Below, one piece after another: positions 1-60,276 of a stretch of DNA of 60,276 nt; the stretch's first letter is position 1, and each line of letters begins with the position of its first letter. Below the pieces are notes generated by a model. It had not been told where the DNA came from, did no database searches, and saw only the letters and a list, made by a program, of their open reading frames with translations. The DNA comes from a virus. The stretch spans positions 1 through 60,276 of the IMG/VR virus record IMGVR_UViG_3300036859_000206; one strand, 5' to 3'. Both the position numbers and the translations under genes were made by a program.

Positions 1-89
1 TCGACCAACGCCAGCAGCTCCTTGCGATCTTTCTGGACGTCGCTCAGGATGAACTTGCTGTCCGGGAACACGCGACCGACGAGACCTCG
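1..89. repeat. Terminal direct overlap, left copy
   Basis: These 89 bases are identical to 60188-60276. A leftward gene runs coherently from 239 through base 1 into 60276-60148, so this is best read as circular-assembly overlap. A third copy of the same sequence lies at 59824-59912, inside a longer 140-bp duplication, so the contig was broken within a repeat. Confidence 0.9.
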
Positions 90-239
90 TGCAATTCGCG
101 CCTGTAGCGCCTCGATGTAGGCGAGCACGTCGTCTACTTGCAGGTCAGACAGCCAGCCGTCCTCGATCAGAGCGTTCTCGTGATGCTCGCGCACCTTGTC
201 GAGCCCGTCGTCATCGTCGCCCCATGCTTCGTAGCTCAT
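1..239 (-). CDS. Hypothetical protein spanning the contig join (N-terminal part)
   Basis: ATG at 239-237, preceded by GAGGGAC about 6 bases upstream. It reads leftward off base 1 and continues at 60276 to a TGA at 60150-60148, giving about 92 residues once the 89-base overlap is collapsed. The N-terminus is acidic (MSYEAWGDDDDG). The C-terminal 46 residues, from ARIARGLVG onward, are identical to the end of the protein at 59784-60143. Function not recognised. The start overlaps the upstream stop as TGATG. Confidence 0.75.
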   Translation of the reverse strand, partial: MSYEAWGDDDDGLDKVREHHENALIEDGWLSDLQVDDVLAYIEALQARIARGLVGRVFPDSKFILSDVQKDRKELLALV

Positions 240-54376: not shown

Positions 54377-55222
54377 CTATACCTGAGCGACCGCCCCGTG
54401 GATCAACCTCGCAATCAAATGCCCAGCCCGAAACCCCGCCCCATCCTTATCCGCATGGATCGTCACGCGCCGCCCACGCAACGGCGCCCAATCGGTCTTC
54501 GTGACCGCGTTGGAGCCACCCGCCCAGGTGACGACGCAGAACGAGGTGAGCTGTCCGGCGATCTCAGCTCGAGTTCGTTCGCCCTCGACGACGAGCACCT
54601 GTGCCGCCGGTCGTTCCGCGAGCTCGCGCAATCCCAGCAGCGGACGCGGTGCTGGCATCGTTACCCCGACGCACCACAGCTCGCGCCCGTCGGCATGTCG
54701 CGCGAACGTAACCTGTGGCGTGTACTTGCCGCCATCCTCGAACTTCCAGCGGATCACATACCCGTGGATCGCGCCGGCCGCATCGGTGTAGGCGTCGACG
54801 CGCTCGGGTTTCGATCGCATCTTCAGCCAGTCGTTGCGCTTGGCGTTCCAGAGTTTCGCCGGGTCCATCGGGATCGCTGGCGCCGGGATGATCGGCGTCC
54901 AGTCGGATGAGGTATCGGGCGGCAGTGGCGGGAGGATCGCGCGCGTGCGTTCGGGGAGTTCGTGGGCGCCTAGGCGGCGGCAGGCTTCGCGGAAGTCGAT
55001 CGACTCGACGTGCTGGAGGAAGCCCACGGCATCTTCCTGAAAACCGCATGAAAAACATCGCACGAACCCCTTGTGCGGCACGACGTAGAAACTCGGGTGA
55101 TGATCGGCGTGCGCTGGACACAGACCGACGTACTCGCGGCCGGACTTCTTCAGGTCGACATAGCGGCCGACGAGATCAGCGAGATCGACTTCGGCTAGCA
55201 GCGCATCCATATCGACGGCCAT
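54377..55222 (-). CDS. DnaG-like primase (CHC2 zinc finger plus Toprim)
   Basis: 281 residues from ATG 55222 with GAGG upstream. CHC2 zinc motif: Cys35, His38, Cys56, Cys59 in YVGLCPAHADHHPSFY and RCFSCGFQEDAVGF. Toprim: VLVVEGERTRAE at about 207-218 and THADKDGAG-like IHADKDGAGF near 255-262. Synthesises RNA primers for replication. Shorter than bacterial DnaG because it lacks the helicase-binding C-terminal domain, consistent with a separate VirE-type helicase. Confidence 0.9.
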   Translation of the reverse strand: MAVDMDALLAEVDLADLVGRYVDLKKSGREYVGLCPAHADHHPSFYVVPHKGFVRCFSCGFQEDAVGFLQHVESIDFREACRRLGAHELPERTRAILPPLPPDTSSDWTPIIPAPAIPMDPAKLWNAKRNDWLKMRSKPERVDAYTDAAGAIHGYVIRWKFEDGGKYTPQVTFARHADGRELWCVGVTMPAPRPLLGLRELAERPAAQVLVVEGERTRAEIAGQLTSFCVVTWAGGSNAVTKTDWAPLRGRRVTIHADKDGAGFRAGHLIARLIHGAVAQV

Positions 55223-55241
55223 CACGCACCTCGCATCGCGA

Positions 55242-55415
55242 TCAGCGCCGAGAGGTCGTCAGGAAGCGGCGTAGATTGCGCCCACGACTACCGCGCACGG
55301 TACCGCCTTCGTTGACGTACACGACGCGTACGCCGTCTCCGAATACGGACCTTAGGTCGTCGGTCAGCCGCGCCGTAATCGGACACGCTGCACGGAGTAG
55401 GTCGCGTTCGGTCAT
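55242..55415 (-). CDS. Small hypothetical protein
   Basis: 57 residues from ATG 55415 (ATGA overlap). ERDLLRAACPITARLTDDLR then SVFGDGVRVVYVNEGGTVRG, a helix followed by a beta hairpin, and a basic end. Its stop falls 19 bases before the primase start. Confidence 0.55.
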   Translation of the reverse strand: MTERDLLRAACPITARLTDDLRSVFGDGVRVVYVNEGGTVRGSRGRNLRRFLTTSRR

Positions 55416-55606
55416 CGCTTGAGTTCCTTTAGCAGATGGTACGGATTCTTGCCGCATTCGCCTGTCGGTCTGACCCATCGCGTGCGAGGCGTGCAGTACT
55501 TCTCCGCGCCGTTCATCAGGCGGATAGCGCCGCACCGATAGCACCACTCGGCATATGCGCCACAGATAAGCCACGACGAATAATGACGGCACCGCTTAGC
55601 AGTCAC
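55412..55606 (-). CDS. Small Cys-rich zinc-binding protein
   Basis: 64 residues from GTG 55606 (GTGA overlap), with GGGAGAAGG upstream; ATG 55621 is an alternative. KRCRHYSSWLICGAYAEWCY, then CGAIRLMNGAEKYCTPRTRW: two CxxC-like pairs typical of phage zinc-finger micro-proteins. Function unknown. Confidence 0.6.
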   Translation of the reverse strand: MTAKRCRHYSSWLICGAYAEWCYRCGAIRLMNGAEKYCTPRTRWVRPTGECGKNPYHLLKELKR

Positions 55607-55815
55607 CACACCTTCTCCCATACAGTCACGCGTCGATACCCCAGCTCAGCCCCAACGCTCTTAGCAATTGGCTTATGTCCAGCACGCATCCCGGAGACAT
55701 AAGCCTCACTGATCCCAGCTCGCTCGGCAATACGGCGCGCTTGGCCTCGCACGCGGCAACGCTTTTGCAAAATGGCTCGCAAAATATCCCCGGTGATGTA
55801 TTGGCGACGTGCCAT
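55603..55815 (-). CDS. Helix-turn-helix regulator
   Basis: 70 residues. DILRAILQKRCRVRGQARRI then AERAGISEAYVSGMRAGHKP is a clear Xre/Cro-type helix-turn-helix in the second half, and the first half could be a winged or dimerisation region. Coupled by stop overlap to the next gene. It may control the replication operon. Confidence 0.7.
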   Translation of the reverse strand: MARRQYITGDILRAILQKRCRVRGQARRIAERAGISEAYVSGMRAGHKPIAKSVGAELGYRRVTVWEKVW

Positions 55816-55817
55816 AA

Positions 55818-55991
55818 CTAGGTCCTCTTATTCCGCTCGAACGTCTCGCGTGCCCGGTTGGTGGCGCAGAATGGGAGGCCATTCCAGCCCGATTTCTTGC
55901 GCCCGATCCGGCCAGCTTTTTGGCGATGCCAAAGGTCGGCGTTGTCGTTGACGTGGCGCGGTGGGCGGGGGTCGAGTTTTGGTGTCATCAT
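55818..55991 (-). CDS. Small hypothetical protein
   Basis: 57 residues from ATG 55991, directly before the ATG of the preceding gene. PKLDPRPPRHVNDNADLWHR then QKAGRIGRKKSGWNGLPF and a basic helical end. Its TAG is two bases before the next ATG, with AGAGG as that gene's ribosome-binding site. Confidence 0.5.
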   Translation of the reverse strand: MMTPKLDPRPPRHVNDNADLWHRQKAGRIGRKKSGWNGLPFCATNRARETFERNKRT

Positions 55992-56038
55992 GTCATCGTG
56001 GGCGGCGCGCCAGCCTCATCACTAGCGCGCGGTTGTTA

Positions 56039-57553
56039 TCACGCCTGCACTTCCGGGCGGTAATGTTCGCCGTACAGGCCAAACGTCGATGCGACTGCAT
56101 TTCGTGCCGTCAGCTTCTGCGCCCGCGCCTTCTCGTACCATTCCCGCCGCTGCTTCGCATTCAAAGACGGATGCGGAATCGGCTTCAACCCCGAATGCAG
56201 CCGCGAGAAGAATTCGCGCACGGTTCCATCCGGTTCAACGGTCGAATTGCGCATATGCAGCATCAGAATTGCTTCGTCGCCGATTTGCTTGCGCAGCAGC
56301 CGTACGCCGTACTCCTCGGCTTCGTCGATACACTCCGCGCCGGTATCCTTGACGTAGCGGGCCAGCCCGTAGCGCTCGACCATGATGCGGCGAATCTCCG
56401 CATTCGGCTCCGCATCTATCAGTGCCGGCGTAATCAGTTCCGGTTGTTCGATAATCCACTGCTCGACGCGAATACCGTGCCAGTGGTACAGCGACCAGCC
56501 GTCACGCCACCGATGCGATGGGCCATCTTCGCAGTGGGGCCGCGCGCGGTTATCCGTCTTGATGAACTCCGGGAAGTCGCTGACCATGCAGAAACGCTCA
56601 TGGACGATACGCCAGCTTCCGTTGATCGCGCAGGCTTCCCATGCCGCGTACTTATCGTGACACGGCAACGATAGTCCGAGAATGTCGCGCGCCGCAGTAA
56701 GGTACGCATCGTAGTCGGCGTAGTGGTTACCGCCGGTAGACATGTTCATGACGTTACCGACGCACGACAAAAGGAACGGCGCGTTGGCGGCGTCAATATC
56801 ACCAGCCATTAGCCGAACCCAAGCCAACGCCCCTTTCGCATCCCCTTTCGCATCCCCTTTCGCATCCCCGGTCGCATCCCTGGTCGCATCCCTGGTCGCA
56901 GCCCCGGTCGCAGCCACGGTCGCAGCCCCGGTCGCATCCCAGGTCGCAGCCACGGTCGCATCCCCGGTCGCATCCCCGGTCGCATCCCTGGTCGCATCCC
57001 TGGTCGCAGCCCTGGTCGCAGCCACGGTCGCATCCCTGGTCGCAGCCCAGGTCGCAGCCCTGGTCGCAGCCCCGGTCGCAGCCACGGTCGCATCCCCGGT
57101 CGCATCCCAGGTCGCAGCCACGGTCGCATCCCCGGTCGCATCCCCGGTCGCATTCCAGGTCGCATCCCCGGTCGCATCCCTGGTCGCATCCCTGGTCGCA
57201 GCCCTGGTCGCAGCCACGGTCGCATCCCCGGTCGCAGCCCCGGTCGCAGCCACGGTCGCAGCCCAGTTACCCATCGCCGAACTGCTCTTAGCCCGAAGAT
57301 GCCAGATAGCAGCAGCAAACCCGCTAGCAATCGCCATCACAAGCGGGCTCGGGACGACGACTACAATCGGCTCTTTCAGATTCGCAGCCGCGTATAGCGA
57401 CTTGATCGCCGGCACGATCTTGTCGGGTTCAATCGGATCGGTACGAAAGGCACGCCGAACCCACAGTTCGACATGCTCCTTCATACGCTGCTTCTCATCC
57501 TCTGTCAGCGGACCGCCGGCATAGGTCGGTGTGCGGATGAATTTCTCGGTCAT
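56039..57553 (-). CDS. DUF6745-like protein with 36 tetrapeptide repeats
   Basis: 504 residues. Unique N-terminus (residues 1-95) with a Val/Pro membrane-like segment (PIVVVVPSPLVMAIASGFAA); then 36 repeats of a four-residue unit (AATx/DATx, x mostly Gly, Val, Arg, Trp) over about 145 residues; then a C-terminal part from about 245 (FLLSCVGNVMNMSTGGNHYA, then CEDGPSHRWRDGWSLYHWHG) of the DUF6745 kind. Paired with the downstream gene. Role unknown. Confidence 0.65.
   Translation of the reverse strand: MTEKFIRTPTYAGGPLTEDEKQRMKEHVELWVRRAFRTDPIEPDKIVPAIKSLYAAANLKEPIVVVVPSPLVMAIASGFAAAIWHLRAKSSSAMGNWAATVAATGAATGDATVAATRAATRDATRDATGDATWNATGDATGDATVAATWDATGDATVAATGAATRAATWAATRDATVAATRAATRDATRDATGDATGDATVAATWDATGAATVAATGAATRDATRDATGDAKGDAKGDAKGALAWVRLMAGDIDAANAPFLLSCVGNVMNMSTGGNHYADYDAYLTAARDILGLSLPCHDKYAAWEACAINGSWRIVHERFCMVSDFPEFIKTDNRARPHCEDGPSHRWRDGWSLYHWHGIRVEQWIIEQPELITPALIDAEPNAEIRRIMVERYGLARYVKDTGAECIDEAEEYGVRLLRKQIGDEAILMLHMRNSTVEPDGTVREFFSRLHSGLKPIPHPSLNAKQRREWYEKARAQKLTARNAVASTFGLYGEHYRPEVQA
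56831..57264 (-). repeat. 12-bp minisatellite, 36 units
   Basis: Tandem units of a 12-base core built on GCATCC/GCAGCC plus CCGGTC or CTGGTC (as read on the plus strand), covering about 432 bases without a single-base frame change. Two versions of the unit alternate and a block of 6 units recurs at 16-unit spacing. It codes for the tetrapeptide repeat of the protein above. Expansion and contraction by slippage or recombination is expected. Confidence 0.9.
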
Positions 57554-57559
57554 GGCGGC

Positions 57560-57928
57560 TTAGTCCTGAACTAGGCGCACTTCGTCGTCGGCCAGTGCTT
57601 CACGCTGGATGATGACGAGGTAGTTGCCGGGGGGCACCGCGATATCGTGATGGTCGCCGGTCGGGCGGCCATCGTGCTCGATGTGCTTGAGGCTGGTCTC
57701 GCGGATGACCTTGAGCGCGCGCTCGACGACGTTGTTGGCGTCGGTCATGGTGAACTCGGTGACGTCGGCGGCGTCCATGCAATGACTGTGCCCGCTGCTT
57801 TCGCCAAGCGCTAGCGTAATGCGTTTGCCGGTTGGCTTGACCTTCTGCGCGTTGGTCAGTGCGGACAACGGCAGGAGCATAACGTCTCCTTGACGGACCA
57901 TCTTCGACTCGACTTTCTTACGTGCCAT
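57560..57928 (-). CDS. Conserved phage protein, QGDV family
   Basis: 122 residues with AGGAG upstream. QGDVMLLPLSALTNAQKVKP, ALGESSGHSHCMDAADVTEF, then HHDIAVPPGNYLVIIQREAL: the pattern QGDV... GExTGHxH... PPGxYxVxxQRE recurs in small proteins encoded beside DUF6745-like genes. Fold resembles a beta-barrel; biochemical role unknown. Overlaps the HAD gene stop by 11 bases. Confidence 0.7.
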   Translation of the reverse strand: MARKKVESKMVRQGDVMLLPLSALTNAQKVKPTGKRITLALGESSGHSHCMDAADVTEFTMTDANNVVERALKVIRETSLKHIEHDGRPTGDHHDIAVPPGNYLVIIQREALADDEVRLVQD

Positions 57929-58469
57929 TTCGTACTCCTAGGTGCCGCGCTTGCGGCGTTGGTTTAGGACATCGCTTGCCTGCTAGGCGCGTGGCGTATG
58001 CTTTGACACGCGACCAGTCCAGCGGATGCACCCACAGTTGGCGGAGGACGCACCCGAGAGCGCGCATCGGCCTGTCGTCTTTGTTCCATGGCCGGAAGGC
58101 GCGCAGAGCGTCAACATCCGGCCATGTGCCGGTAAACGTGATTGCGCGATCGTCGATCGAAATGAGCGCGGGAGGCTTCGTGAGTGGGAATTCGATTGCG
58201 GCTATGAGGGTACTCGGCCACTGCGGTTCGCTGCCATTCGACTGTGCCTCAATCTCGCGTTCCATCCATGTGCGCATCGCGTCAATGCCGCCGTCTTGGT
58301 TCGATCGTGTGCTGAACACCATAATGCGAAAATGTTTTACGGCCTCACGTAAGAACGTAGCCGCACCAGGAACCATCGGGTCCGGTATTACGTCCGCGCC
58401 CTTCCATCTGCTCGTGTAGCTGTGCAAAACGCCGTCGAAGTCTAGGCACAGGATCGGCTTGTCGCTCAT
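57918..58469 (-). CDS. HAD-superfamily phosphatase-like protein
   Basis: 183 residues from ATG 58469, preceded by GGAGGAAGG. HAD motif I LCLDFDGVLHSY with the nucleophile Asp and acid/base Asp; motif II FRIMVFSTRS; motif III-IV ALISIDDRAITFTG. The C-terminal 50 residues are Lys/Arg-rich. Could be a 5'-nucleotidase or polynucleotide 3'-phosphatase; substrate not readable. Confidence 0.8.
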   Translation of the reverse strand: MSDKPILCLDFDGVLHSYTSRWKGADVIPDPMVPGAATFLREAVKHFRIMVFSTRSNQDGGIDAMRTWMEREIEAQSNGSEPQWPSTLIAAIEFPLTKPPALISIDDRAITFTGTWPDVDALRAFRPWNKDDRPMRALGCVLRQLWVHPLDWSRVKAYATRLAGKRCPKPTPQARHLGVRNGT

Positions 58470-58491
58470 ACCTTCCTCCAATTTTACAGGC

Positions 58492-58692
58492 TCACAGATC
58501 GAACCCATCGCGGAATAACTGATCCGGACGACAATCCACCACCCCGCTAAGCTGATTCCCAGGGACACTCAGCGCCACCCCAGACACCGAGCACCCCGCC
58601 GTCCCAACCGTCGTGCCGTCGAGTAGGCGGATGGTGATATTCGAGGTCGTGGCCGGCGTGTATAGCGCCAGCAGGATCACGAGAAGGTTCAT
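58492..58692 (-). CDS. Small secreted protein
   Basis: 66 residues from ATG 58692 (ATGA overlap). MNLLVILLALYTPATTSNIT is a short signal sequence; the rest is beta-like with Thr/Val/Gly and two Cys, ending RDGFDL. Followed by the HAD gene. Function unknown. Confidence 0.55.
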   Translation of the reverse strand: MNLLVILLALYTPATTSNITIRLLDGTTVGTAGCSVSGVALSVPGNQLSGVVDCRPDQLFRDGFDL

Positions 58693-59153
58693 GATGCCCT
58701 GATTTCCCAAAGGGTGCGCGCGACTCCTCCGCTTCCGACAGGATCGCGGAGTTCCTTTAGCTTGACGCTCGATCCGTGCCACGAACCGCGTGCCGGCAAA
58801 TCCTTGACCTTGACGAAGCCGGCGGCGCGCAACGATGCGCCACTTTCACCGGCCTCCGTGTAGGTGATCGCGCGCACGTAACCCATCGCTTTCGCCGCGC
58901 GCCAGCTGGCGCCATAGAGCATGGAGTTCGCGTTGCGGCTGCCGTCCGTGCACGTGCGGTTTATCTCGACCGTGAACCCGTCATCGAAAGCGCGCGCGAT
59001 CGGCCGCCCTGACGATGCTACGCCGACGATCACGCCATCGATCGCGACTGCAATGCTGAACTTGTGCCCACGCGGCGGCTTGCTGTGCCGGTGATGCTGC
59101 GCGACGAAAGCGCAAGCGGCCCGGAACGTGATCGGTTGGATTCGCAGCGACAT
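58689..59153 (-). CDS. XF1762-family GNAT-like protein
   Basis: 154 residues. RIQPITFRAACAFVAQHHRH, GVASSGRPIARAFDDGFTVE, INRTCTDGSRNANSMLYGAS, WRAAKAMGYVRAITYTEAGE matches the XF1762 family of small phage and plasmid proteins with an acetyltransferase-like core. It could acylate a small substrate or protein; the target is unknown. Confidence 0.85.
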   Translation of the reverse strand: MSLRIQPITFRAACAFVAQHHRHSKPPRGHKFSIAVAIDGVIVGVASSGRPIARAFDDGFTVEINRTCTDGSRNANSMLYGASWRAAKAMGYVRAITYTEAGESGASLRAAGFVKVKDLPARGSWHGSSVKLKELRDPVGSGGVARTLWEIRAS

Positions 59154-59155
59154 GA

Positions 59156-59281
59156 TTAGGCGAATGCGCGGCCGGCGAGTAGGGCTATGGCGGTGACGAG
59201 GATTGCGGCGGCGATAAACGCGAGCCGCTTCCTACGCTCGTTCTGACGCACGATGGCGGCCATGGTGAAGTAGTCGCTCAT
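59156..59281 (-). CDS. Membrane micro-protein
   Basis: 41 residues from ATG 59281 (ATGA overlap): MSDYFTMAAIVRQNERRKRL then AFIAAAILVTAIALLAGRAF. Positive-inside N-terminus and one C-terminal membrane helix, stop TAA two bases before the next ATG. Unknown function; other small membrane proteins occur in this unit. Confidence 0.5.
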   Translation of the reverse strand: MSDYFTMAAIVRQNERRKRLAFIAAAILVTAIALLAGRAFA

Positions 59282-59610
59282 GTGCGGCTGATCCGCTCGT
59301 ATTCGGCAAGCAGCAACGCGCCAGCCTTAGCGATTTCACGCAGGCGCCCTTCCTTCGTTCCGGCGCTCGGCTTGTAGCTAGACGCGGACCATGGCCACCA
59401 CCAGAGCGCGCCTTTCGGATGGACCATCGACATGAGCAGTTCTCGGCTGTCCGGCGGCATCGCGTAGCAAACGGCCGCCATCGCGATTTCACCCTGGGTA
59501 TGCGTGTCGTCGTGTTCGGGGTCGTAACCTTCAACGCACACTTGCCGGTGGCGCTCGACGCGGAACGCGAGGACCGCGCCTGCCATCTCTGATTCTTGCT
59601 TCGGTGTCAT
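59278..59610 (-). CDS. Conserved phage hypothetical protein
   Basis: 110 residues from ATG 59610. VERHRQVCVEGYDPEHDDTH, TQGEIAMAAVCYAMPPDSRE and WWWPWSASSYKPSA, then EGRLREIAKAGALLLAEYER. The 'ERxRQ..EGxxPEHDD.H..GE' and 'WPW....YKP' segments occur in a large family of phage small proteins of unknown role. ATGA overlaps on both sides. Confidence 0.7.
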   Translation of the reverse strand: MTPKQESEMAGAVLAFRVERHRQVCVEGYDPEHDDTHTQGEIAMAAVCYAMPPDSRELLMSMVHPKGALWWWPWSASSYKPSAGTKEGRLREIAKAGALLLAEYERISRT

Positions 59611-59611
59611 G

Positions 59612-59779
59612 TCAGTCAATCCAATACGCATCATCAATCGCGTGATGCCCGCATTTCGAGCACACGGCCGTACCGTAGCTGCCGTCTTCCGGCGCGTACC
59701 ACTCCGAGTAATCGTGGTCGGTGCCGTCTGGGCATTTTAGGCGTGGGCCGCATGTGTGGATGGTTATGGGATCGGTCAT
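59612..59779 (-). CDS. Small zinc-binding protein
   Basis: 55 residues from ATG 59779. HTCGPRLKCPDGTDHDYSEW, then TAVCSKCGHHAIDDAYW: a C..C..C..C zinc-finger arrangement common in phage genes. Its ribosome-binding site GGAGG is the end of the upstream coding sequence. Confidence 0.6.
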   Translation of the reverse strand: MTDPITIHTCGPRLKCPDGTDHDYSEWYAPEDGSYGTAVCSKCGHHAIDDAYWID

Positions 59780-59783
59780 TGGA

Positions 59784-60143
59784 TTAGTCCTCCAACACGA
59801 CAAGCGCGACACGTTTGCGGGCTTCGACCAACGCCAGCAGCTCCTTGCGATCTTTCTGGACGTCGCTCAGGATGAACTTGCTGTCCGGGAACACGCGACC
59901 GACGAGACCTCGTGCAATTCGCGCCTCGCACGCCTGATGCGCCGTGACGGCCTCGTACTCGACGCAATACTTGGCCGCTTCCTCCAACTCCGCGACGCGG
60001 GCCTTGAGCGCTTCGTAATCCTGCCGAGTCATGATCGCAATCTGCGTTGTACCGGGTAGTGGCGTACGCGAATCCCAATCGGCGACCGCAATGTCGTCAC
60101 CGCTTCTCGGTGGCCAAAAGACAGCCCAGGCTTCGGTAATCAT
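59784..60143 (-). CDS. Hypothetical protein with duplicated C-terminus
   Basis: 119 residues. Residues 1-70 are unique (MITEAWAVFWPPRSGDDIAV; coiled YEALKARVAELEEAAKYCVE). The last 47, from EARIARGLVG on, are identical at the base level to the end of the join-spanning gene. The stop TAA is preceded by TTGGAGGAC, which doubles as the ribosome-binding site for the following gene. Confidence 0.65.
   Translation of the reverse strand: MITEAWAVFWPPRSGDDIAVADWDSRTPLPGTTQIAIMTRQDYEALKARVAELEEAAKYCVEYEAVTAHQACEARIARGLVGRVFPDSKFILSDVQKDRKELLALVEARKRVALVVLED
59786..59926. repeat. 140-bp perfect duplication, copy A
   Basis: About 140 bases identical to 60150-60276 continuing at 90-103 across the join. 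They encode the shared C-terminal residues and the GGAGG ribosome-binding site of the next gene. Divergence is abrupt at both ends, as after a recent copying event. Confidence 0.9.
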
Positions 60144-60147
60144 TTAC

Positions 60148-60276
60148 TCAGTCCTCCAACACGACAAGCGCGACACGTTTGCGGGCTTCGACCAACGCCA
60201 GCAGCTCCTTGCGATCTTTCTGGACGTCGCTCAGGATGAACTTGCTGTCCGGGAACACGCGACCGACGAGACCTCG
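60148..60276 (-). CDS. Hypothetical protein spanning the contig join (C-terminal part)
   Basis: Continuation of the gene beginning at 239. Ends in ALVEARKRVALVVLED and TGA (60150-60148), the same end as the protein at 59784-60143. The TTGGAGGAC before its stop serves as the ribosome-binding site for the ATG at 60143. The window end 60188-60276 is the terminal overlap. Confidence 0.75.
   Translation of the reverse strand, partial: RGLVGRVFPDSKFILSDVQKDRKELLALVEARKRVALVVLED
60188..60276. repeat. Terminal direct overlap, right copy
   Basis: 89 bases identical to 1-89. Together with the coherent gene across the join, this supports a circular or circularly permuted genome map. Confidence 0.9.

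What the first reader, a model, noticed from the sequence alone, without database searches (positions are those of the whole stretch)
56039..57553. 36-unit tetrapeptide repeat gene with 12-bp minisatellite
The repeat is in frame throughout and has higher-order duplications, so it is likely to expand or contract. The (A/D)AT-x period of four does not match pentapeptide repeats and suggests an unusual solenoid or helix. The unit is flanked by a membrane-like N-terminus and a DUF6745-like C-terminus. A phase-variable or length-variable phage protein would be notable.
Basis: partly seen in the sequence, partly recalled or inferred. Interest (0 to 1): 0.75.

Follow-up and report, generated by a model that had tools for sequence, protein, structure and literature searches.

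The report
Fast-changing four-residue repeat phage protein
A phage gene carries a stretch of 36 near-identical four-amino-acid repeats that changes length and sequence much faster than its surroundings in some related phages, sits beside a conserved partner gene, and may be a quickly evolving binding surface of unknown target.

Summary
In detail: a 504-aa gene (56039-57553, minus strand) contains 36 in-frame tetrapeptide units (9 distinct 12-mers) between a conserved N-terminal domain and a Pfam DUF6745 domain. Many relatives carry period-4 arrays at the same place, with other motifs (x-D/A-S-V, x-D/G-Q-L, x-S-Q-V, x-D/A-N-L). Array length is not fixed: two contigs identical over 4,264 bp upstream and 99.8% over 2,127 bp downstream have arrays of 495 and 438 bp. 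Metagenome contigs often end at the array (35/80 and 39/80, against 0/80 and 1/80 on the control sides). In 69 of 69 usable A-T arrays, codon x varies at its first base (mean 1.53 bits) while fourfold synonymous sites hardly vary (0.05-0.09), which points to diversifying selection on x rather than passive slippage. The gene forms a two-gene module with a small, probably all-beta protein that has no Pfam family. No reverse transcriptase (DGR) in 20 of 20 records. Phase variation is unlikely (12-bp unit), though one relative of 15 checked is frameshifted in the array. A membrane anchor is unlikely, not excluded. Best reading: a hypervariable, recombining recognition array in a phage early-region protein; target and fold unknown. 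My paper searches found nothing on this family.

The parts
56039..57553 (-). DUF6745 protein with tetrapeptide array, 504 aa
57266..57553 (-). conserved N-terminal alpha/beta domain (aa 1-96) with [VI]xxSP motif, shared with 11 viral relatives aligned
   Evidence: alignment; 80 viral loci kept; model
56834..57265 (-). array of 36 x 12 bp = 36 tetrapeptides (aa 97-240)
56198..56644 (-). DUF6745 domain, best stretch aa 304-452
   Evidence: Pfam PF20530, E 1.5e-30
57560..57928 (-). partner gene, 122 aa, modelled all-beta, RQGDV...GExxGHxH...HxEH family (phrog_27831, E 3.8e-7), 6 bp upstream of the array gene

Best explanation
The array is a hypervariable, modular binding segment. SHOWN: a tetrapeptide array lies between two conserved domains; in the close pairs and triple examined it changes length and unit order much faster than its flanks, in frame; within arrays residue x (and less strongly residue 2) varies while synonymous sites hardly do; the gene is nearly always beside a small partner gene on the same strand. 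INFERRED: 12-bp slippage or unequal recombination keeps homogenising and re-shuffling units, while selection preserves variety at residue x, so the protein presents a quickly changing series of exposed side chains (D/R/Y/H/S/N or W/R/G/E) that bind a variable target. The gene lies in the window's replication and DNA-modification region, so the target is more likely intracellular (host or rival-phage factor, or nucleic acid) than a cell surface. The DUF6745 domain with its partner would be the constant working part, which also exists without arrays in actinobacterial chromosomes. Likelihoods: rapid, mostly in-frame array change about 0.9; diversifying selection on x about 0.75; recognition role about 0.45.
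For: Array change: L177/L178/L183 (three metagenomes) have arrays of 495/438/378 bp; L177-L178 flanks 100% over 4,264 bp upstream and 99.77% over 2,127 bp downstream; L183 flanks 99.98% upstream, 96.3% over 673 bp downstream. L230/L232 (99.5% upstream) part after 36 bp of array; L021/L022 (98.8% over 4.2 kb downstream) differ inside the array. Selection: in 69 of 69 A-T arrays (>=10 units) entropy at x base 1 (mean 1.53 bits) exceeds that at the fourfold sites of A(3) and T(4) (0.048, 0.086) and at x base 3 (0.229), Wilcoxon p 5e-13 each; 54 of 69 have none at either fourfold site. pN>pS in 129 of 136 distinct arrays. Flavours with different DNA vary at the same residues. Module: partner within about 400 bp, same strand, in 29 of 30 viral array genes of the DUF6745 set, 32 of 36 of the N-terminal set and 65 of 68 bacterial loci, all with both flanks; 76 of 80 loci found from the partner hold DUF6745. 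Position: helicase/primase, methyltransferase and Mom-like genes nearby.
Against: No target, fold or activity is known: no significant PDB match for either protein, and the array is modelled with low confidence. Five copies in one Roseovarius genome have identical arrays, so change is not instantaneous. One of 15 uncut contigs has a frameshift in the array, and L004 has an in-frame stop near its contig end. 7 of 136 arrays have pS>=pN. Unit phase was chosen by variability, which favours high entropy at x (the within-codon comparison of x base 1 with base 3 is free of this). No consistent spacing of x along arrays was found that would mark one binding face. Array-less viral loci have the partner adjacent in only 8 of 14. 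Homologues without arrays exist (Microcystis phage LMM01; most actinobacterial rows), so the array is not essential for the module. Length differences rest on assemblies, without reads.
Confidence: 0.45

Rival explanations
1. Passive elastic linker: a slippage-prone 12-bp minisatellite that the protein tolerates between two domains; residue x is simply unconstrained.
For: Large length range, including homologues with no array; low-complexity composition; low-confidence structure.
Against: Relaxed constraint predicts x base 3 to vary like base 1; it does not (0.229 against 1.53 bits, base 1 higher in 69 of 69 arrays). pN exceeds pS in 129 of 136 arrays. Arrays of different flavours keep period four.
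Confidence: 0.25
2. DNA-level element: the 12-bp repeats act as DNA (iterons, recombination or origin-like sites) and the coding array is a by-product.
For: Near-perfect 12-bp units; the gene lies near replication genes; frozen synonymous sites would fit a DNA constraint.
Against: Unit DNA differs between relatives while the protein period and the codon positions that vary are kept. No Rfam match over gathering score in 55000-60276.
Confidence: 0.1
3. Helical filament or clustering scaffold whose length sets valency rather than specificity.
For: AlphaFold draws long helices; alanine-rich A-T flavour. In one phage arrays occur as separate small ORFs while its DUF6745 gene has none.
Against: Helix confidence at most 61 in any 10-residue block; glycine-rich flavours (GAV, DGV; sequences) should be poor helix formers (general knowledge); no lag-9 signal as a helix face would give; valency alone does not explain variety at x.
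Confidence: 0.15
4. Copy-number differences seen in metagenome contigs are mainly assembly collapse or mis-joining.
For: Contigs break at the array; the window array (432 bp) may exceed a short read.
Against: Complete arrays in a prophage record of an isolate and in one chromosome-level MAG; differences between near-identical contigs are in frame (495/438/378 bp) and include new unit combinations.
Confidence: 0.1

Closest known systems
DUF6745 (PF20530) proteins
   Same: C-terminal domain well over the curated cut-off; N-terminal SP-motif domain and adjacent partner gene shared.
   Different: Most actinobacterial rows carry a non-repeat middle region; 22 of 80 genome loci lie beside STM4011-STM4015 radical SAM cluster genes, against 0 of 160 viral loci.
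TAL effector repeats (recalled, not fetched)
   Same: Near-identical DNA repeats in which variation is concentrated in codons of two residues per unit (the repeat-variable di-residue).
   Different: Unit is 4 residues, not 33-34; no Pfam match to TAL repeats; no DNA binding shown.
Pentapeptide repeat proteins
   Same: Short-period repeats in phage and bacteria; a pentapeptide-like ORF (by eye) lies about 0.2 kb from the array gene in L002 (10366-11034).
   Different: Period four, different motif, no Pfam match in the window protein.
Diversity-generating retroelements
   Same: Variable residues encoded mostly by codons with a fixed third base, often NNC.
   Different: No reverse transcriptase in 20 of 20 records searched; asparagine is rare at x, unlike adenine-templated mutagenesis (recalled).
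Phase-variable contingency loci
   Same: Coding tandem repeat that changes copy number.
   Different: 12-bp unit keeps the frame; 14 of 15 uncut contigs are in frame throughout.

Membership tests
DUF6745 (PF20530) | score over Pfam's gathering cut-off | tested here: met
   106.5 bits against 27
DUF6745 + partner module (defined here) | small RQGDV...HxEH protein adjacent on the same strand | tested here: met
   57560-57928, 6 bp gap; HMM E 2.3e-30, but the window protein was in the seed
Pentapeptide repeat proteins | A(D/N)LXX five-residue period | tested here: not met
   period 4 in 36 units; no Pfam match
TAL effectors | 33-34 residue repeats with Pfam match | tested here: not met
   4-residue unit, no match
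Diversity-generating retroelement target | reverse transcriptase in the element | tested here: not met
   PF00078 in 0 of 20 records, window included; other records may be fragments
Phase-variable gene | unit length that shifts the frame when copy number changes | tested here: not met
   12-bp coding unit; exception among relatives: L181/L057, 1 of 15 uncut contigs, is frameshifted in its array
Anti-phage defence system | match to PADLOC model | tested here: not met
   0 families at E<=1 for both window proteins and one homologous pair; covers only systems described by 2023
T4 gp5-like beta-helical needle | triple-stranded beta-helix repeat | tested here: inconclusive
   weak PHROG match 0.046 and Gp5_trimer_C 0.0013, below its cut-off, in homologue L061; low-complexity bias likely
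Membrane protein | N-terminal transmembrane helix | tested here: inconclusive
   hydrophobic stretch in 24 of 37 proteins inside a confidently modelled alpha/beta domain

The most novel reading that the evidence does not exclude
A tetrapeptide 'code': each four-residue unit exposes a variable pair (x and residue 2), and phages rewrite the order and number of units by in-frame recombination, giving a diversity-generating system for intracellular recognition that needs no reverse transcriptase, with the DUF6745-partner pair as its constant effector part.
Probability: 0.25. Interest if true: 0.88.

Novelty: new variant of a known kind. Interest (0 to 1): 0.62.

Why it matters
If right, this is a widespread phage route to protein diversification without a dedicated mutator, in a gene pair that also exists in bacterial chromosomes, in part beside an uncharacterised radical SAM cluster. 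It also warns that viral metagenome contigs break at this gene, so the family is often seen as two halves: in 6 of 21 contigs found by both scans the two halves lie at opposite contig ends.

Tried and rejected
Close-relative scan with the whole protein: 9 stretches matched a pattern, none confirmed; alignments solved it. Foldseek: no PDB match at E<=0.001 for partner or array protein; VIA-align on the partner: best Z 2.9, none at 5 or more. PDB sequence searches: only weak or low-complexity matches. Periodicity of x along arrays: excess mainly at short lags (1-6), as local duplication predicts; no helix or solenoid period. Literature: 'DUF6745' 0 papers; tetrapeptide/phage/tandem-repeat combinations showed nothing on this family in the listings (listings and abstract starts only); STM401x names in 2 papers, one mention each (listing only). 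PMC6821194 was read in found passages only: a general survey of low-complexity regions in prokaryotes and phages; 'tetrapeptide' does not occur in its main text. Flavour tree (FastTree, 151 rows): 41 changes among 11 labels; the 'none' label also holds rows whose array is cut off by a contig end, so changes of 'none' are overcounted. A resemblance of an alanine-rich ORF in L007 to a 'putative immunity protein' family is recalled only; Pfam gave no match at 0.1. Rows dropped: array analyses kept 136 distinct arrays out of 241 source proteins (the window and three sets of 80), those with a period-4 score of at least 12 and not contained in another; the synonymous-site test kept 69 of these (A and T over 80% at residues 3 and 4, at least 10 units).

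Full report
WHAT IS THERE. The gene at 56039-57553 (minus strand, 504 aa) carries 36 tetrapeptides at aa 97-240 coded by 12-bp units (TRF 35.8 copies, score 564). There are 9 distinct 12-mers. Variation sits in bases 1, 2 and 5 of the unit, apart from one WNAT unit and three terminal GDAK units. A 5-unit block recurs (units 5-9 and 21-25; 0.75% of 2,000 shuffles reach that length). The N-terminal domain and the DUF6745 domain (106.5 bits, cut-off 27) flank the array. The partner gene 57560-57928 lies 6 bp upstream.

RELATIVES. Viral contigs with DUF6745 (best 80 kept of 167 confirmed), viral contigs with the N-terminal domain (best 80 of 107) and bacterial genomes (best 80 of 139) show the same architecture, many with arrays of other flavours: x-[A/D/S/Q/G]-A-T, x-[D/A]-S-V, x-[D/G]-Q-L, x-S-Q-V, x-[D/A]-N-L, x-Q-N-I and others. 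Homologues without arrays include Microcystis phage LMM01 and most actinobacterial rows. The flavours are clustered but scattered on a DUF6745 tree (changes QL 4, QV 4, SV 3, AV 5; forced by well-supported branches 3, 4, 3, 3), so the motif seems to have been replaced repeatedly while period four stayed. DUF6745 is rare in whole genomes: 3 of 299 in the phylum of the Pseudothauera genome and 6 of 198 in that of Nonomuraea, centres included.

ARRAYS BREAK ASSEMBLIES. A contig end lies within 500 bp upstream of the DUF6745 match in 35 of 80 contigs, downstream in 0 of 80, expected about 1.4. From the N-terminal side, 39 of 80 contigs end within 500 bp downstream, 1 of 80 upstream, expected about 2.1. 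In 6 of 21 contigs present in both sets the two halves of the gene lie at opposite ends. L002 and L004, two contigs of one metagenome, also end inside such an array.

ARRAYS CHANGE FAST, MOSTLY IN FRAME. L177, L178 and L183 come from three metagenomes. L177 and L178 are identical over 4,264 bp upstream and differ by 5 bases in 2,127 bp downstream, yet their arrays are 495 and 438 bp; L183 has 378 bp (upstream 99.98%, downstream 96.3% over 673 bp). L230/L232 and L021/L022 differ likewise, as do the cut arrays of L083/L085. Against this, five copies in one Roseovarius genome carry identical arrays. In 14 of 15 uncut contigs found from both ends the N- and C-terminal halves share one open frame; L181/L057 is frameshifted early in its array, by nature or by sequencing error. 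L004 has an in-frame stop near its contig end. These are assemblies; no reads were seen.

SELECTION ON RESIDUE X. In 69 A-T arrays of at least 10 units mean entropy is 1.53, 1.09 and 0.23 bits for the three bases of codon x, 0.72 for the middle base of codon 2, and 0.05-0.09 at fourfold sites; x base 1 exceeds the fourfold sites of A(3) and T(4) in 69 of 69 and x base 3 in 69 of 69; x base 2 exceeds A(3) in 68 of 69. Over 136 distinct arrays pN exceeds pS in 129; the 7 exceptions are L024, L033, L077, L079, L155, L177 and L204; some of these are probably out of phase because of odd-length units. Phase was chosen by variability; the comparison within codon x does not depend on it. x residues with third base C are mainly D, R, Y, A, G, L, S, H; with third base G mainly G, R, W, E (the T counts there probably come from mis-phased arrays). 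No reverse transcriptase was found in 20 of 20 records.

THE MODULE. A partner HMM seeded with four proteins, the window's among them, and rebuilt from its hits finds the partner within about 400 bp of the open frame on the same strand. With both flanks present: 29 of 30 array-bearing and 8 of 14 array-less genes of the viral DUF6745 set; 32 of 36 array-bearing and 1 of 2 array-less of the N-terminal set (in the 4 misses the partner lies elsewhere in the locus by this rule); 65 of 68 bacterial loci (18 of 18 scored as repeat-bearing, 47 of 50 not) (the sets overlap, near-duplicates and the five Roseovarius copies are counted, and L155 is scored as repeat-bearing for a different short repeat). 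Where the gene is cut at its 5' side by the contig end, 22 of 36 viral loci still show the partner downstream. Starting from the partner, 76 of 80 viral loci hold DUF6745, 50 of them with an array in the locus; of the other 4, two show a period-4 signal and two neither. The partner has no Pfam match at 0.1 for the window protein and only sporadic weak ones among 34 members, and no NCBIfam match over cut-off for three members. Its model is all-beta, pLDDT 83; G14, H49, H82, H85 and the C-terminal D122 are invariant in 34 sequences, which hints at a metal site (inference). In 22 of 80 genome loci and 3 of 5 plasmid loci viewed the pair lies beside STM4011-STM4015 genes; in 0 of 160 viral loci. 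The Deinococcus DUF6745 protein has leucine-rich-like repeats, by eye, before its DUF6745 domain (Pfam LRR match only 0.011, under cut-off): possibly another repeat module in that place.

INTERPRETATION. A slippage-prone array whose synonymous sites are homogenised while residue x stays diverse suggests selection for variety, as in repeat proteins that recognise variable targets (the TAL effector comparison is recalled). The window gene lies among helicase-primase, methyltransferase and Mom-like genes, so an intracellular target is more likely. Fold and target remain unknown; the array is modelled as helix with block-mean pLDDT 38-61 and no period of x along arrays marks a face. Linker, scaffold and DNA-element rivals are set out above.

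Noticed in passing
window 58689-59153 (-): Mom-like DNA modification protein (phrog_1384, E 1.8e-36) close to the module.
   Followed up: no
window 1-117 and 59786-60276: The first 89 bases recur exactly at the right end, and a 127-bp stretch occurs twice near the right end (59786-59912 and 60150-60276): a terminal repeat or assembly artefact.
   Followed up: partly
L003 13993-14656, L008 1-260, L020 3108-4223: One 82.5-kb contig has repeat-only small ORFs (MTTVK-DATW...) at both contig ends, while its DUF6745 gene has no array.
   Followed up: partly
L252 5359-6369; L253; L255: DUF6745-partner pair beside the STM4011-STM4015 radical SAM cluster; Deinococcus version has leucine-rich-like repeats.
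   Followed up: partly
L105-L109: Five copies of one DUF6745 gene with identical arrays in one Roseovarius genome, perhaps repeated prophages.
   Followed up: no
L181 / L057: N-terminal domain and DUF6745 lie in different frames because of a shift early in the array.
   Followed up: partly
L007 5300-6200 (-): Unrelated alanine-rich ORF with period-4 AAxx repeats, no Pfam match.
   Followed up: no
window 57918-58568 (-): HAD-like gene (HAD_SAK_2 E 1.7e-4, under cut-off; phrog_23773 E 5e-19) overlapping the partner gene by 11 bp.
   Followed up: no
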